From positions 248,001-312,000 of the forward strand of contig JAADJZ010000016.1 of the NCBI GenBank assembly GCA_011032825.1: a DNA stretch of 64,000 bases, in the 5' to 3' direction. The notes under the pieces are model-generated. The model was not told the origin of the DNA. It made no database searches and saw only the letters and a program-made list of their open reading frames with translations. The stretch comes from Massariosphaeria phaeospora. Lineage: Eukaryota > Ascomycota > Dothideomycetes > Pleosporales. The position numbers and the translations under genes are program-made. Shown here in pieces: positions 11,493 to 56,722 of this stretch (positions are counted from its first letter, which is position 1; each line of letters opens with the position of its first letter).

Positions 11493-14400
11493 TCATATCC
11501 GTCGAGGGCGCTTTTCAGCTCCCAACTCAATCGCCGTGCGGCTGTTCAGCATCTGGGCTTCGGTGCCGGCAGGCGGAGGGTGCTTCTGGATGTATTCTTG
11601 CCGTATGCGCACCGCATTTGTGTCCCAGGTAGCCACGCGCTCTTTGTATGTCGCGGCATTTGCCGCAGCATCTTCTTTTGCGTTCTGTGTTTGGTTCACA
11701 TACGGTTGCCTTACTGCTGCGCTTGCAGTCCGCCACTTGAGGCCAATTGCCGTGCGGATCTCCGTCTTGGAAGCCTTCGCCTCCGCGCCGCCCGTTGCAG
11801 TCCTACGCGCCTCGTCGCATTCTTTCTTGCAGATGTACCATTGATCCTTCGTGAAGAGCAGAAAAGGGTTTATTCCCGCTCGTCCAGGCTTGATTGGCCG
11901 TTCGCCAATCTCATTCAGGATTGCTCCAATGATCGAGGCTTCGTAGTCCTCGTCAGGCATAATGTCACTGTCTTGCTGTATTGGTACTGTGTCAGTCTTG
12001 CGTTTAGGCGTTGGGTTAAAGCTTGGAACAGGAATATCGACCTTCGCCTTCTTTTCCACCAACGGGCTTGGGATTTCGATGGGTCCTATCATCGTCTGCA
12101 CAACTTCTGCCGCAACACGAAGGCCCGACAGATAGGCACCGTGGACAGTCGCCGGATGAGTTCCGCACGTAGCTTCTCCCGCGAAATGTAATGACCCATG
12201 CGGACGAGCCATAACATCATAATCTCCAGCTTGCGTCTTAGGACCAACGTATGAATAACTGCCACGAGCAAAAGGATCTTTGCTCCATCTCGTCACGATT
12301 GCTTCCGAAGGAAGAGGAACCATGTTTGGCGCAAACATCTCATCTAACCGGTCTGTGACCTCATGGATGAGATGGTCATCGGTGCTTGTCTCAGCATAAT
12401 GAGCCGCCTCGCCCGCCATGAGTGCGACGAGGGTCGGTTTGCCGCTGGTTTTGATGCAATTCCAGAAGAGGTAGAACCGGCCCCTCCGAGCAGAATAGTC
12501 GTCCGGGTTTAAGCTCGCTTGGTGCTCTGCCTCGTTCAATAACCCAAACATGTCTCGATCCGGCTCCCAGAACGCTTCTTCATAGACGAGTATCACCTGG
12601 CATGTTGTTAATAAACGTAAACCTGTTACATTTGTTATACCATACCTTGTTCAGAAGGCCGAATCCCATGCGCTCAATAACACTCTGCTTCCAGTCCGGG
12701 AGCGGAGGCTGGAATGTGATCGATCCTGATTTCAGAACGCCCAAGGGCGTAGTTATGACGAGCTGGTCTGCCTCAAACACTTCCCCGCTGTTGCATTCAA
12801 CTTTAACAGCCTTTCCGAAGCCACGGCTCTCGTCTTTGTGATGTATAGCTCGGACGACAGAATTGAAACGCACGTCGAGTTTACCAGGACATTGCCATAG
12901 CCCTCGCGGGACTTGTTGGTAACCACCTATTATCTCAGTATGCTCGCCTTCAAACTCGTTACCGATATCCTGGTCCCAGCCACTGAGGCTGAGCTGATTG
13001 ACGCTTGCCGCATTGGCATATTCAAGATTTGCATGGTGCCAGCTCAGAAGTCGCAAGTCTCTAGGCTTCATCTCGATGAGATTTTGATACTGCTTGATGC
13101 CATCGTCCATCGTTTGTCCTAGAGTAGGGTACTCAAGTGACTTGGTGATCGGATCTAGGTCTAATGATTGTCCAGTCGGTGCGCCGGGTCTTAAACGCCA
13201 GCCCATATTTTGAACGGCCTCCGCCGCTGAGATGTTTGGGTTGAAACCGGCACTAAGTTGATAAGCCCGTCCAGCCAGTTTTTCCACTCCGGTCGACGGC
13301 TTCTCCTCCGTTGTCGATGCCGGAGTCTTCGCGTTCGCAGGCAGCGGAGTGGGTGAATTCTCAAGGGTTGCAATGGTGGCTCCAGGAGTATCGCTCGGGT
13401 CTCGTCCAAAGAGAATGAGGTTCCGGTCGCCTTCGACTGTTCTCTGTGCCGTAGGTTTATGCCGATAGACGCTTGCACGTTCTAAAACATCGTTGTACAG
13501 CTTCTCCACAAGCAAATCTTGACTTCGTTCAACGATTGTACCGTCATAGTCGTAGAGTATAGTGTTGTCTCGAAGACCATGGTACGGGATGCCGAGCTGT
13601 CCTCGAATGATCGCATTTAGAGGATTTCCGTGTTCAAATCCCGTGACTATCTGTGCACCCATTTCAGCGGTACAACGATGTCCAGCAGGAAGGTTAGAGC
13701 CAGTCTGGTCTCGCAATGGATGCGAATACACCCGGCCACCAACCCGAGGTCGAGCTTCAAGCACAATAACTTTCGGCGGTTGCTCCCCAGTGGTCGTCCA
13801 GTGGTCACTCAATTGTGTAAACAAGCCTTCCAGATGTCTCGCGCACCCAAGGCCTGCCATACCAGCCCCGATCACTATTACTGTCCGCCGGCCATTGTTC
13901 TTTGCCTTCGATCGTGGTGGCGCACTCGTAGTATTGGGAACGTGAACGCAGCCAAAGTTGATATAACCGTTTCTCAACAGCCAAAAGTAGGCGACTTGGG
14001 CAAGGTTGAAATGTCGTTTCTCTCGAGCACACCCAGCGGCTTCTTCTATCGTCACAACAAGTAGCGGATTCCGTGTCCACAACCTCAGAATCGCGTTCCT
14101 GATATTCAAGTATATCGTAACCTGAGCTTGCGTGATGTGGTCTCGCAACAATCTGTACTCCCCAGGATGCAACGCGAAAGGGTTGAGACGCGAGCTTTCA
14201 GCTGCCAGGATACACTGTCTGGCAAACTCTGACCATGAAAGAGCGGCTGGTATGGACGAGTTGGCTTTGAACTCAGACACTTTGTGATTGCTGGTCACCA
14301 CGCGATGCGCGTTGGAAGATTCTTGAGAGTGAGTGCGTTCGGGGATCAACGAGGTTTTTGATCCGCCGTTGCGATTATCGACGCTTTGTGCCATAGGTAA

Positions 14401-14949
14401 TTCTGTGTTTGATGCGCCGTTGAGGTTATCGACGCTTTGTGCTATCGGGAAATCGGTGTTCGATGGGTTGGTGTTGGCATTTGGTGGCGCAATCGGTTGC
14501 ACTGGGGTGGTCCCGTGGGTAGTATGAAAGGTTGGGGCAGTAGAATTCATATGAATAGCCGCGTTGTAGTAGTGTCCGTTCGGAGGGCCATTCACTCGTG
14601 AGTTCCGTAGGGGATGAGGGTAATATAGTGGGGAAGGCGCGTGACTGCGCTCATAACCATTCATATGTCCACTAGAGGCTGACCCATCTCGCTCGTCCCT
14701 ACCGCTAATATAACCCCCGTATGGCTCCGACAAGTCGTGAGCGTTGGACGATGATGTAGTGGATTCACTGTAATGCCCATATATCAAGCTGTTGAGCCCA
14801 GTTATCGGGACCGTGCCGGGGGCTTGGCCCTTCAAATGTACGCTCTCGTGAGACATCGGCATCGAGAGGAGGTCATTGTGAGCGTGCTCGAAGAGAAACG
14901 TATCTTGATCGAGCGCATCGTCGGGGCTGGCCGCAAAGGTTGAGAACAT
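11493..14949 (-). CDS. LSD1: LSD1/KDM1-like histone demethylase with C-terminal HMG box
   Basis: Two exons, complement of 11493-12596 and 12646-14949, join in phase across a 49-bp intron (GTATGG...CCAG) to give 1135 residues. After a Ser/Asn/Pro-rich N terminus of about 230 residues comes a SWIRM domain (about 235-350), then the FAD Rossmann motif VIVIGAGMAGLGCARHLEG, the amine-oxidase fold through GFGLLNKVILVYEEAFWEP, and the closing FAD segment (HFAGEATCGTHPATVHGAYLSG). A C-terminal HMG-box-like region near 1000-1090 (INPFLLFTKDQW, IGLKWRTAS) follows. SWIRM plus amine oxidase plus HMG box is the layout of filamentous-fungal LSD1 homologues such as HdmA. LSD1 enzymes remove methyl groups from histone lysines with FAD as cofactor. 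The TOWER insertion of animal LSD1 is not evident. Confidence 0.93.
14357..14460 (-). repeat. In-gene 51-bp tandem duplication in the LSD1-like N terminus
   Basis: Two copies of a 17-residue unit of the type NT(D/E)-x-P-x-AQSVDN-x-NG-x-S are adjacent. The shared core acgctttgtg occurs at 14381 and 14432 on the plus strand. Confidence 0.8.
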
Positions 14950-33340: not shown

Positions 33341-34192
33341 ATGGCTCCCAAGGTCGCTATCGTCTACTACTCCATGTACGGCCATGTCAAGACATTGGTA
33401 CGTGTTTGAGCTTCTTGCGTCTCTTACAGAGTCCATGTTTGCCTATGGACCCGCGTAGAGAAGCTGCTAACAATTCCATCATAGGCCGACGCTGAGAAGA
33501 AAGGCATCGAGGAGGCCGGCGGTACCGTGGACATGTACCAGTAGGTTTTCCCAGCCCAGTTCGATATCAGCTACTACTCCAGGCGGCTTTCTTCCATTAC
33601 GGCCGATGTCGTCATCATCGACTAACTTTGCTACAGGGTTGCCGAGACCCTTTCCCAGGAGGTTCTGGGCAAGATGCACGCCCCACCAAAGTCTGAAGAT
33701 CCCGTGGTCGAGGATCCTAGCATCCTCGAGAAGTACGATGCCATCCTCTTCGGTATCCCTACGCGCTACGGAAACTTCCCAGCTCAGTTCAAGACTTTCT
33801 GGGACATGACTGGAAAGCAGTGGCAGCTTGGCTCCTTCTGGGGCAAGTACGCGGGCCTGTTCATCTCGACCGGTACCCCAGGTGGAGGCCAGGAGTCCAC
33901 TGCCATCGCGGCCATGTCCACTCTCGCTCACCACGGCTTCCTCTACGTACCCCTTGGCTACAAGAACGTGTTCGGTACGTCTCTCCCCTTCGTAACAATT
34001 ACGTCATGCGTACTAACAAGCCGTCCAGCCCAGGTCACCAGACTAGACGAGGTTCACGGTGGCAGCCCCTGGGGCGCCGGTACTTTCTCCGGCGGAGACG
34101 GTTCGCGCCAGCCGACGCCGCTCGAGCTCGAGATTGCCCAGTTACAGGGCAAGGGCTTCTACGAGCAGATTTCCAAGGTCAACTTCGCGTGA
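33341..34192 (+). CDS. Flavodoxin-like NAD(P)H:quinone oxidoreductase (Pst2/Ycp4/WrbA family)
   Basis: Exons 33341-33397, 33485-33540, 33637-33974 and 34029-34192 join in phase to 204 residues. The N terminus ([12 protein letters not shown]) is the FMN phosphate-binding loop; [18 protein letters not shown] and [13 protein letters not shown] are the other flavin-site segments. The family includes yeast Pst2, Rfs1 and Ycp4, fission-yeast Obr1 and the minor mould allergens Alt a 7/Cla h 7. Members carry out two-electron quinone reduction, limiting oxidative stress, and in yeast sit at plasma-membrane domains. The reading frame ends at TGA (34190-34192), directly followed by CTA, and the same frame remains open for 67 further codons to a CaaX box; see the next entry. 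Intron 2 (96 bp) is the longest of the three. Confidence 0.93.
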
Positions 34193-34396
34193 CTAGATGA
34201 CGCGGACGCAACGGAAGCGGGCACACAAGCAGGGGCACCGGCTACCGCACCCGCAGGAATAGAAAACGAATCGAAAAAGACAACGGCAGCTACTGCAACA
34301 ACACCAAATGTTACGACGGCATCGGGACCACAGCGCAAAGAGGAGATGGATAGTGAGGGGCCTTGTGGGCTGCCTGCTAAGTGTGCCATTCTATAA
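34190..34396 (+). other. Predicted stop-codon readthrough extension ending in a CaaX box
   Basis: Directly after the TGA of the flavodoxin-like gene, in the same frame, lie 67 sense codons and then TAA (34394-34396). The junction is TGA-CTA, the best-known leaky stop context in eukaryotes, used in fungi and animals to add peroxisomal or other C-terminal signals. The extension starts LDDADATEAG, is rich in Ala, Thr, Gly and Pro (a disordered linker), and ends PCGLPAKCAIL. CAIL is a CaaX box, with Leu in the last position favouring geranylgeranylation; a second Cys six residues upstream of the CaaX Cys could be palmitoylated. The isoform would have 272 residues with a lipid anchor. Alternatives are a recent nonsense mutation in a formerly longer gene, or an in-frame splice (GT at 34189, AG at 34353) that also reaches CAIL. 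Confidence 0.65.
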
Positions 34397-38807: not shown

Positions 38808-39602
38808 TTAAACACCCAAAACCTTCTTCGCAGCCGTCCACAAGACATCGCGATCAGGCGTATGCGTCGTCTTAACACACCCGGTAAGATACGCATCCCA
38901 GCCCTTCGCGTCTCCGGCGGCCAACCCCTTCTGAATCTCGGGACCACACTGCGTGGTCAAGTGCCAGGCGGCACTCCCAAACGACTCGTTATCGCCGCTC
39001 ACGAGCTGCAGCACGGCCTCGGGCGTCGTCGCGCCGGCGATCTTGTCCGGAAACAGGGCCGCAGCGTACAGCTTGTTGTTATCGGGCATCTGCATGTTCT
39101 TGGTGCCCTGGCCGGGACGGCCTGGGTAGTGGTTCTTGTTGTAGACGAAGGAGCCCGACTCGAACATCATGATGGCGATGAGGGCCGCTTGCGTGCCTTT
39201 TTCCGTGATCTCGTATTTGGCGAAGGAGGCGCTGATGGCGGGGCCCGCGCGCGCCGCGTCGGCGCACTCGTTGGGGAATTCGGCCGTCGCGCAGGATTTG
39301 GTGGCCGGTGTGATACTGAGGATCGTGTCGGCTGTGATGGCGCCGCCGGCGCTGGGTGCGACACTCTGGGCTGGGGCCGCGGGGGTTTGGGCTGGAGGTG
39401 CGGAGCTTAGGGCTGGAAGTGCGGAGCTTAGGGCTGGAGGTGCGGAGCTCTTCGCCGGAGGTGCGGAGCTTGGGGCTGCAAGCGACGGAGTGGCGACGGG
39501 GGCGACTGGAGTGGCGGGGGCTGGGGCGGTGGAGCCACAGGGGAGAGCAGATGCCGAAAGTGCAAAGGCACTAGCCAAGAGGATAGCAGATTTGAAAAGC
39601 AT
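38808..39602 (-). CDS. Small secreted protein with Pro/Ala/Ser linker and a conserved fungal domain
   Basis: A single-exon frame of 264 residues. Residues 1-19 (MLFKSAILLASAFALSASA) are a clear signal peptide. Residues about 20-90 are a repetitive Ser-Ala-Pro-Pro linker with units such as SSAPPALSSALPALSSAPPA, typical of O-glycosylated spacers. Residues about 90-264 form a compact domain with four Cys (KSCATAEFPNECADA, TTQCGPEI, LTGCVKTT), MMFESGSFVYNKNHYPG, GTKNMQMP and GSAAWHLTTQCG. Similar domains occur in secreted proteins of many ascomycetes; the Glu in an amphipathic helix and the overall pattern recall lysozyme- or transglycosylase-like folds, but this is only a structural guess. Length, secretion signal and proximity to the repeat array fit an effector or cell-wall-active protein. 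Confidence 0.85.
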   Translation of the reverse strand: MLFKSAILLASAFALSASALPCGSTAPAPATPVAPVATPSLAAPSSAPPAKSSAPPALSSALPALSSAPPAQTPAAPAQSVAPSAGGAITADTILSITPATKSCATAEFPNECADAARAGPAISASFAKYEITEKGTQAALIAIMMFESGSFVYNKNHYPGRPGQGTKNMQMPDNNKLYAAALFPDKIAGATTPEAVLQLVSGDNESFGSAAWHLTTQCGPEIQKGLAAGDAKGWDAYLTGCVKTTHTPDRDVLWTAAKKVLGV

Positions 39603-54975: not shown

Positions 54976-56722
54976 ATGTCAGAACTCAGTGTCTACGACA
55001 AAGATCCGACACTGTACCTCTTCACCTCGCTCACAGCTGGCTCTTCGCACATAATAACCGCTACCTCGCGCATCGACACTATCCTCAAAGCGAACAAGCT
55101 TGCGTTCAAGTATGTGGACACCGCAACCGATGACCTGGCACGGAAGCTGTATGGCAGGAGGGGCAAGGGCAAGAAGCTCCCGCTGCTGGTGAAGGAGGGT
55201 TTCGTACTCGGCGTGCGTACATATACAGATGCTGGCAGAAAGGGATGGGGCTAACATTGCGGTGTAGGACCTCGAGGAGATCGAGGAGTGGAACGAGTAT
55301 GGCGAGCTCAGGGAAGCCCTGGGGTTCGATGATACACCTGCCCCCTCGAAACCCACCCCGAAGGCCCCAAATGCAGCACCGGCAGCAGCATCGGCACAGA
55401 AGGAGAATGTCCCGGCTGTCACTGCGGAACAGAACCTGGCAATTCGACAGCTCGGCGCCGAAGCTGCAAAAGTCGCGGCGGCGAAGAAACAGACTCCCGC
55501 GAGCATCTCGACGACAAATCCGCTGCTTACGGAGAAGACTAACTCACCTGCTACTGCTACACCGACTAAGGGAACGAAGTCAGACCTAAGCGGTATCCTC
55601 TCGCCCCGCTCAATTGCGCTACCCGCGACACCGAAACCATCCACTACAAGCAAGGATAAGGGCAAAGACATGAGCAAGGATAAGAGCAAAGATAAAAGCA
55701 AAGATCAGGCCAAAGACGAGGCCAAAGATAAGGCTAAGGACAAGAGCAACGACAAGAGCAACGACAAAATCAGCGACAAGAGCAAAGACAGGGGCAAAGA
55801 CAAGGCCAAAGACAAGGCCAAAGATGAGGCCAAAGACAAAGTCAAAGATAAAGCCAAGGATAAAGCCAAGGATAAAGCCAAAGACGAGGCCAAAGATAAG
55901 GCCAAGGACAAGAGCAAAGATAAGGCCAAGGACAAGAGTAAAGACGAGAGGAAAGACAAGAGCAAAGACACGAGCAAAGATAGGAGTAAAGACAAGAGCA
56001 AAGATAAGAGCAAAGACAAGAGCAAAGACGAGAAGACGATTGCAGAGAAGTTCGGTATCCCGAAGCTGACGTCCGCGCCTGTGAAGAACCCGCCTTCAAT
56101 GCATGTCGACGCCGCACATCCGGAGCTCGCAGCCCCGCCGAAGTCTGTGTCACAGAAAGCGCCGCCTGTAGGTAACGAGAAGCTCAAGAAGGTCGAGCAG
56201 AAACCGACGACTGCGGAAGAAGCTAGTAGTGAGGAGGACGAAGAGGAAGATGATGATGATGAGGAGGAGGAGGAGGAAGATGAAGACGAGAGTGACGATG
56301 ATGCGGACGAGGAGGAGAATGACGATGATGAGGAAGAGGAGAGCGAGGACGAAAGTGAGGAGGAGAGCGTGCCAGTTATCGTGAAAGGAAAAGAGGCGCC
56401 GAGTTCTGCTGAGAAGAAAGTAGAGACTCCTGCGGCCAACAAAGCGAAACCTCAGGAGCAGAGCGCCAAGGAGGAGAGCGACGATGATGCGGATGAGGAG
56501 GAGAGTGATGATGATGGGGATGAGGAGGAGAATGACGACGATGCGGATGAGGAGGAGAGTGACGAAGATGACGAAGAGGAGAGTGAGGAGGACAGTGAAG
56601 AGGAGAGCGTACAGAATACTGTGCAAGGAAAAGCAGCGCCGAGTTCTGTGGAGAAGAAAGTGAAAACTCAGGAGCAGAGTGCAAAGGCTGCTGATAAGGC
56701 TGGCGATAGTGTGGAAGATTGA
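54976..56722 (+). CDS. SH3BGR/glutaredoxin-like fold protein with KD-repeat and acidic tail
   Basis: Exons 54976-55212 and 55268-56722 join in phase 0 to 563 residues. Residues about 8-100 form a thioredoxin-like domain of the SH3BGR/glutaredoxin-related type (LYLFTSLTAGSSHI, KANKLAFKYVDTA, KKLPLLVKEGFVLGDLEEIEEWNEYGEL); there is no CxxC, so it should not be redox-active. An Ala/Pro-rich linker leads to a run of about 130 residues (around 215-345) of alternating Lys-Asp with Ser/Ala (SKDKAKDKSKDK), encoded by 12-bp units. After a short non-repetitive segment comes a tail with two long Glu/Asp blocks separated by a repeated segment (GKEAPSSAEKKVET, GKAAPSSVEKKVKT). The tail should be disordered and highly charged. 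The function of fungal members is unknown; a scaffold, cortical-actin or chromatin-binding role would all be guesses. Confidence 0.85.
55650..56035 (+). repeat. In-gene 12-bp tandem repeat coding (S/A)KDK
   Basis: About 30 imperfect copies of a 12-base unit of the type agcaaagayaag/gccaaggayaag. Period and coding frame agree, so length changes by whole units keep the frame. Confidence 0.9.
56230..56610 (+). repeat. In-gene GAG/GAT-rich acidic repeat, duplicated block
   Basis: GAG/GAA/GAT/GAC runs encode poly-acidic tracts at about 56230-56365 and 56475-56610. They are separated by and followed by two similar stretches (56380-56460, 56625-56690), suggesting a duplication of one roughly 250-bp block. 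Confidence 0.8.

What the first reader, a model, noticed from the sequence alone, without database searches (positions are those of the whole stretch)
33341..34396. TGA-CTA readthrough predicted to make a prenylated isoform of a flavodoxin-like quinone reductase
Seen: the 204-residue protein ends at TGA followed by CTA; the same frame is open for 67 codons and ends CAIL-TAA, a CaaX box, preceded by a second Cys (PCGLPAKCAIL). Established: UGA-CUA is the best-characterised leaky stop context, and fungi use it to add targeting signals to a small fraction of an enzyme pool. Inference: most protein is soluble and a few percent carries a geranylgeranyl anchor, placing the quinone reductase at membranes, where yeast relatives are found. 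Readthrough to a lipidation box, rather than a peroxisomal signal, would be unusual.
Basis: partly seen in the sequence, partly recalled or inferred. Interest (0 to 1): 0.88.

Follow-up and report, generated by a model that had tools for sequence, protein, structure and literature searches.

The report
Leaky stop adds membrane anchor tail
A fungal antioxidant enzyme gene ends in a leaky stop signal, and the protein tail hidden behind that stop, which ends in a membrane-anchor tag, is conserved across many fungi, so the gene probably makes both a soluble and a membrane-bound enzyme.

Summary
Observation confirmed. The gene (3 introns, 204 aa, Pst2/Ycp4-type quinone reductase; Massariosphaeria phaeospora) ends TGA CTA G; 67 open codons follow, ending EGPCGLPAKCAIL-TAA. 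The tail is real protein: 66 retrieved homologues, from seven classes of Pezizomycotina by those looked up, share its GPCGLP-like core, and 65 of 66 continue to a Cys box with aliphatic a2. Five homologues from metagenome/archive sources read Trp-Leu at the stop site; in two, a second Trp follows the CaaX box, so Trp there is almost surely TGA. An annotated Halenospora protein, nearly identical to one of them, lacks exactly the 13 residues around the stop. Splicing is poorly supported here: no YTNAY branch-like motif in 34100-34396, weak donors. Candida Ycp4 has a fixed CAAX tail and lies at the plasma membrane, but so do its paralogues. Most likely, UGA-CUA readthrough makes a minor prenylated, perhaps also palmitoylated, isoform. 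Neither was measured, and no other fungal DNA was available. In the papers searched, the only comparable case found is one predicted signal (fly Syx17). New variant of a known kind.

The parts
33341..34192 (+). Flavodoxin-like NAD(P)H:quinone reductase gene (Pst2/Ycp4 type), 204 aa; introns 33398-33484, 33541-33636, 33975-34028
34190..34196 (+). Leaky stop context TGA CTA G
   Evidence: Sequence; UGA-CU shown sufficient for readthrough in U. maydis (PMC4207609 section 6)
34193..34393 (+). In-frame readthrough extension, 67 codons: variable Ala/Thr/Pro-rich linker, then conserved end
34355..34393 (+). Conserved tail EGPCGLPAKCAIL: upstream Cys (possible palmitoylation site) six residues before the CaaX Cys
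34382..34393 (+). CaaX box CAIL
34394..34396 (+). Second stop, TAA
34189..34353 (+).
   Evidence: In frame, but no YTNAY in 34100-34396 and GTGACT not enriched before branch/acceptor anchors

Best explanation
One mRNA gives two isoforms of one quinone reductase. Most ribosomes stop at UGA 34190-34192 and release the soluble 204-residue enzyme (stop shown by sequence; rate inferred). A minority read UGA in the leaky UGA-CUA-G context as a sense codon (Trp, Arg, Cys or Ser) and add 67 residues ending GPCGLPAKCAIL (inferred). The CaaX Cys is then prenylated (CAIL: geranylgeranyl-type) and the Cys six residues upstream may be palmitoylated, which tethers a small pool of the enzyme to a membrane, most likely the plasma membrane, where it can reduce membrane quinones such as ubiquinone (inferred from Candida and yeast Ycp4). 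The tail is old in Pezizomycotina; lineages seem to reach it by different routes: readthrough here and in several unnamed fungi, perhaps splicing or a sense codon elsewhere, and a separate gene with a fixed CAAX tail (Ycp4) in Candida.
For: In-frame 67-codon tail with CaaX directly after TGA CTA G. GPCGLP and the CaaX Cys invariant in 16 aligned long forms including the window's; 65 of 66 tailed homologues have the Cys box, a2 is I, V, M or L in 65 of 65, and the upstream Cys is exactly six residues before it in 64 of 65. Seven classes by look-up of one or more species each. Trp-Leu at the site in P0087, P0123, P0124, P0173, P0178; a second Trp after the box in P0087 and P0123; only 1 Trp in 3563 residues of the same region in 61 annotated long forms. 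P0126 equals P0123 except one substitution and the loss of exactly VNFAWLAEGSAKE in the shared stretch. No branch-like YTNAY and no strong donor around the stop. UGA-CU readthrough is established in a fungus. Candida Ycp4 ends in a CAAX box and is at the plasma membrane; yeast Ycp4 is listed among Erf2 palmitoylation substrates with Ras1 and Ras2.
Against: Readthrough, prenylation and location not measured. DNA of relatives not seen: in P0124, P0173 and P0178 the Trp could be TGG, and CTN against TTR is unknown. P0171 may have a sense Trp there. Many close Pleosporales orthologues are annotated as 203-206 aa short forms and whether their DNA keeps the tail is unknown. Annotated long forms may come from real alternative splicing. 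No positive control in this genome: PGK ends TAG, GAPDH ends TAG, RPE ends TGA GTG. In Candida the paralogues Pst1, Pst2 and Pst3 are also at the plasma membrane, so the tail may not be needed for that. No special RNA structure follows the stop (z -0.18).
Confidence: 0.8

Rival explanations
1. Alternative splicing makes the tailed isoform: a facultative intron spanning the stop (for example GT 34178 or GT 34189 to a downstream AG) joins the enzyme to the tail, and the unspliced mRNA gives the short form.
For: In-frame GT..AG pairs exist. 61 annotated long forms from other species are gene models that continue past this point, and in most the residues VNF before the stop are missing (3 of 61 match [KQ][VI][NS]F), as if an intron began after the Lys codon. 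Two gene models of Colletotrichum tofieldiae differ by four residues at the junction (P0155, P0160), as alternative acceptors would give. PGK of this same genome has a splice-type layout, and fungi switch between the two mechanisms (PMC4973966 section 4).
Against: No YTNAY in 34100-34396, whereas the gene's three introns each contain CTAAC. Donors GTCAAC (0 seen, 2.5 expected) and GTGACT (1 seen, 1.7 expected) are not enriched before CTAAC...YAG anchors, GTACGT (10, 1.7), GTAAGT (8, 1.8) and GTGAGT (7, 2.0) are; the method is coarse, since some non-donor hexamers (GTTATA, GTCCCA) also rise, and GTGACT was 5 against 2.4 with the control anchor. P0123 reads through the site without a gap.
Confidence: 0.12
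2. A-to-I editing of the mRNA turns UGA into UGG (Trp), for example in sexual tissue, so the long form is a stage-specific edited product.
For: Editing of stop codons exists in filamentous ascomycetes (PMC4817773, start of abstract in the listing). Trp at the site in P0171 would be the edited residue.
Against: The edited stops in that abstract are UAG; G before the edited A is disfavoured (recalled). Editing does not explain Leu after the Trp in all six Trp-bearing homologues.
Confidence: 0.03
3. The tail is an untranslated relic: the stop arose by a nonsense mutation in a gene that used to make the long form only, and the tail is no longer used.
For: GC3 of the extension is 0.42 against 0.77 in the body, as in rarely or never translated sequence; annotation gives only the short form.
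Against: 67 codons free of stops with core and CaaX intact; Trp-for-TGA at the same site in P0087 and P0123, which resemble a leotiomycete (P0126) rather than the window's order.
Confidence: 0.05

Closest known systems
Fungal UGA-CU readthrough adding a peroxisomal signal (Stiebler 2014, PMC4207609: abstract, section 6 and passages seen; Freitag 2012: only cited in papers seen)
   Same: UGA followed by CU(A), conserved extension carrying a targeting signal, soluble enzyme as main form, mosaic of splicing and readthrough among species
   Different: Here the signal is a CaaX lipidation box with a second conserved Cys, not a PTS1
Ycp4 of Candida and Saccharomyces
   Same: Same enzyme family; C-terminal extension ending in a CAAX box in C. 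albicans, plasma membrane; palmitoylation substrate in yeast
   Different: Separate gene with the tail fixed in the reading frame; no stop codon in between according to the passages seen. Homology of the tails themselves was not tested
Drosophila Syx17 readthrough extension (PMC3840789, passages)
   Same: Readthrough extension with a predicted farnesylation signal
   Different: Animal SNARE; one predicted signal in that screen, and lipidation not tested in the passages seen

Membership tests
Pst2/Ycp4 (WrbA-like) NAD(P)H:quinone reductase | Flavodoxin-like/WrbA domain over the whole protein | tested here: met
   FMN_red, Flavodoxin_1 and Flavodoxin_2 above cut-off; yeast Pst2 structure 5mp4 E 5.2e-80 over residues 3-200
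Pst2/Ycp4 (WrbA-like) NAD(P)H:quinone reductase | Quinone reductase activity with FMN | not testable with these tools
   Needs enzyme assay
Functional translational readthrough gene | Leaky context UGA CU(A) | tested here: met
   TGA CTA G at 34190-34196
Functional translational readthrough gene | In-frame extension conserved as protein in other species | tested here: met
   65 of 66 tailed homologues with core and box
Functional translational readthrough gene | Stop and leaky context conserved in other species at DNA level | tested here: inconclusive
   Trp-Leu at the site in five proteins, certain as TGA only by inference in P0087 and P0123; no DNA seen
Functional translational readthrough gene | Measured readthrough product | not testable with these tools
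   Needs reporter, ribosome profiling or mass spectrometry
CaaX-prenylated protein | Cys fourth from the end, aliphatic a2, permitted X | tested here: met
   CAIL; a2 is I 48, V 12, M 3, L 2 in 65 homologues; X tally
CaaX-prenylated protein | Prenyl group on the Cys and membrane binding | not testable with these tools
   Needs labelling or localisation
Alternative-splicing dual targeting (as for some fungal PGK and GAPDH) | Usable donor, branch point and acceptor around the stop | tested here: not met
   No YTNAY in 34100-34396; GTCAAC and GTGACT not enriched as donors

The most novel reading that the evidence does not exclude
UGA-CUN readthrough at this site is the ancestral way in which Pezizomycotina divide one quinone reductase gene between a soluble and a doubly lipidated plasma-membrane form. 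It has been replaced repeatedly by splicing, by a UGA-to-UGG sense change, or in yeasts by gene duplication into Pst2 and Ycp4, and annotation pipelines have hidden it behind invented mini-introns. Since oxidative stress is reported to raise stop codon readthrough (PMC11616006, passage), the switch may itself be a stress response that sends the antioxidant enzyme to the membrane.
Probability: 0.35. Interest if true: 0.87.

Novelty: new variant of a known kind. Interest (0 to 1): 0.74.

Why it matters
It would extend functional readthrough in fungi from peroxisomal signals to lipid anchors, with a tail conserved over a whole subphylum, and show a translational switch that other lineages seem to have turned into splice forms or separate genes. 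It is directly testable: one stop context, one tail, one location. It also suggests that standard gene models hide readthrough by inserting short artificial introns, and bears on how fungi place antioxidant quinone reductases at membranes.

Tried and rejected
Tail-only protein search (residues 203-272 of P0001): 177 candidates, none at E 10 or better, although tailed homologues exist; the tail is probably too short and too simple for a database of that size. DNA pattern for GPCGLPxxKC: 4 loci in genome contigs (bacterial records) and 1 in viral contigs, taken as chance and not examined. Alignment scan of viral contigs: one weak relative, L036, matching residues 4-43 only. RNA structure around and after the stop: z -0.18. 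Positive controls for readthrough in this genome: PGK ends TAG ATC with a splice-type layout, GAPDH ends TAG GAG, RPE ends TGA GTG as worked out from the three frames; none helps. TIM was searched but its end was not read. Structure prediction was not run. A first idea that the 39-base gap in the Halenospora model could hold no branch motif was dropped: depending on the Ala codon, CTGAC could occur at the stop itself, about 11 bases from the donor.

Bias: the 120-row list was ranked by a profile that includes the tail, so 66 tailed homologues is not a frequency. Some rows are not independent: P0122 and P0027 come from one species, P0155 and P0160 from one, P0147 and P0153 from one. P0150 is a partial record and the one of 66 without a Cys box. 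Literature listings were capped: one search showed 20 of 45 papers, 15 of 6,395, 20 of 188, 12 of 201; others (2; 14; 12; 13; 11) were listed in full. 'Readthrough' in PMC12609287 and PMC3405040 means fused transcripts.

Full report
What is there. The window lies on contig C8 (1,104,394 bases) of a 42-Mb genome. The 204-residue product is identical to a Massariosphaeria phaeospora protein whose longest contig has the same length; the species is a Pleosporales ascomycete. The gene has three introns, each with a CTAAC motif. Its product is a flavodoxin-like quinone reductase by family, close to the solved yeast Pst2 (5mp4, E 5.2e-80). The gene ends TGA CTA G; the same frame runs for 67 codons to MDSEGPCGLPAKCAIL-TAA.

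Is it more than chance? In 264 kb of this genome, both strands, 1 of 60 TGACTA sites leads to an open frame ending in a strict CaaX (2 of 60 with a permissive pattern), and 1 of 8101 TGA triplets with a closed downstream frame has 67 or more open codons plus strict CaaX; both are this site. The patterns are mine and were written after seeing the tail. Open frames of 67 codons after TGA are common by themselves (746 of 8101).

The tail is conserved protein. A search with the read-through protein returned long homologues of 243-281 residues that align over the whole query. In 16 aligned long forms, the window's included, G261-P266 and C269 are invariant. A second search with a seven-row profile brought more. 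Of 203 proteins held, 67 including P0001 have [GA][PS]CGLP. Of the 66 homologues, 65 continue to a Cys box; a2 is I in 48, V in 12, M in 3 and L in 2; the upstream Cys is exactly six residues before the box Cys in 64 of 65. X is L in 32, Q in 13, M in 12, S in 5, and T, A and V once each. Species looked up place these homologues in Dothideomycetes, Eurotiomycetes, Leotiomycetes, Sordariomycetes, Lecanoromycetes, Geoglossomycetes and Pezizomycetes.

The stop looks old. Five long forms come from metagenome or archive sources without an organism name (JGI, 'lgn'). All five read A-W-L at the site of the stop: NFAWLDG, NFAWLAE, HGAWLDG, SSAWLDG, PKAWLHG. The 61 annotated long forms hold 1 Trp in 3563 residues of the same region, in P0171. 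In P0087 and P0123 a second W follows CAVL and CTIL, where a CaaX protein should end; this is what a gene caller gives when it reads TGA as Trp (inference). For P0124, P0173 and P0178 the W could be TGG; P0178 has a further W three residues on. P0123 and the annotated Halenospora varia protein P0126 differ, over the shared stretch, by one substitution and by a gap of exactly VNFAWLAEGSAKE in P0126. As an intron this would be 39 bases, shorter than is usual in fungi (recalled); the simplest reading is that the annotation pipeline inserted an intron to avoid a stop. Leu after W in all five, and in P0171, fits selection for CTN after TGA, but the DNA was not seen.

Splicing. In-frame GT..AG pairs that would remove the stop exist; the pairs of 40 bases or more have no CTNAY inside, and no YTNAY occurs in 34100-34396. 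Before CTAAC...YAG anchors in 264 kb, GTACGT (10 seen, 1.7 expected), GTAAGT (8, 1.8) and GTGAGT (7, 2.0) are enriched; GTGACT (1, 1.7) and GTCAAC (0, 2.5) are not. With a control anchor these three were not enriched (3 and 2.4, 2 and 2.5, 2 and 2.8), while GTGACT was 5 against 2.4; some non-donor hexamers also rose with the real anchor, so the test is coarse. By contrast the PGK gene of the same genome has GTAAGT over its TAG stop and a 51-base candidate intron that would end the protein in SRL, a PTS1-like tripeptide.

How it most likely works. UGA followed by CU is sufficient for readthrough in Ustilago maydis (PMC4207609, section 6); UGA CUA (G) alone gives readthrough in the range of 4% in human cells (PMC4973966, passages). 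A few percent of long form is therefore plausible but was not measured. C. albicans Ycp4 has an extension of about 90 residues ending in a CAAX box (PMC4556627, passages), and GFP-Ycp4 lies at the plasma membrane; but Pst1, Pst2 and Pst3 do so too (section 11), so the tail may strengthen rather than create membrane binding. Yeast Ycp4 is listed as an Erf2 palmitoylation substrate with Ras1, Ras2 and Ste18 (PMC5364179, one passage), and Cys243 appears in a table of palmitoylation sites and predictions (PMC3929663, one passage). The invariant Cys six residues before the CaaX Cys suggests prenyl plus palmitoyl (inference). The core gene was found at one place in this genome, though only the best candidates are scored; Alternaria brassicicola is credited with two family members (PMC6916069, passages). 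The lower GC3 of the extension (0.42; body 0.77) fits rare translation. Oxidative stress is reported to coincide with more readthrough (PMC11616006, passage), which would suit an antioxidant enzyme.

What is not shown. Readthrough, prenylation and location were not measured. Many close Pleosporales orthologues are annotated as short forms; whether their DNA keeps the tail is unknown. Annotated long forms elsewhere may come from real splicing; in 58 of 61 the VNF-like residues before the stop are missing. PGK, GAPDH and RPE of this genome give no positive control for readthrough.

Literature. Searches, some with capped listings, showed no report of fungal readthrough leading to a CaaX box. The nearest is one predicted farnesylation signal in the Drosophila Syx17 extension, with a PhyloCSF score of 290.83 (PMC3840789, passages). 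Mammalian extensions were screened for prenylation sites (PMC4359377, passages). The mosaic of splicing and readthrough for PGK and GAPDH is in PMC4973966, section 4. The library holds only open-licence papers.

Verdict. Observation confirmed; interpretation supported, with the lipid type and the routes in other lineages qualified. New variant of a known kind.

Noticed in passing
L031 (G000:C19, PGK gene, minus strand): The PGK stop TAG lies within GTAAGT; a 51-base candidate intron would give an in-frame end SASSRL, a PTS1-like tripeptide: a likely alternative-splicing peroxisomal isoform, as reported for A. nidulans PGK.
   Followed up: partly
P0126 (Halenospora varia) against P0123: The annotated model lacks exactly 13 residues around the stop; probably an invented 39-base intron. 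Readthrough genes may be hidden in this way elsewhere.
   Followed up: partly
P0171 (Sarcosagium campestre): Named record with Trp-Leu-Asp-Gly at the stop site and an intact tail: possibly a fixed sense codon (TGG) that makes the long form constitutive.
   Followed up: no
window 55649-56581: Tandem repeats: 12-base unit AGCAAAGACAAG, 32 copies at 55649-56033, and a 27-base unit, 4.2 copies at 56469-56581; perhaps a repetitive acidic protein.
   Followed up: no
window 39355-39490: GC-rich tandem repeat with a 21-base unit, about 5 copies.
   Followed up: no
window 14353-14465: 51-base unit repeated 2.2 times.
   Followed up: no
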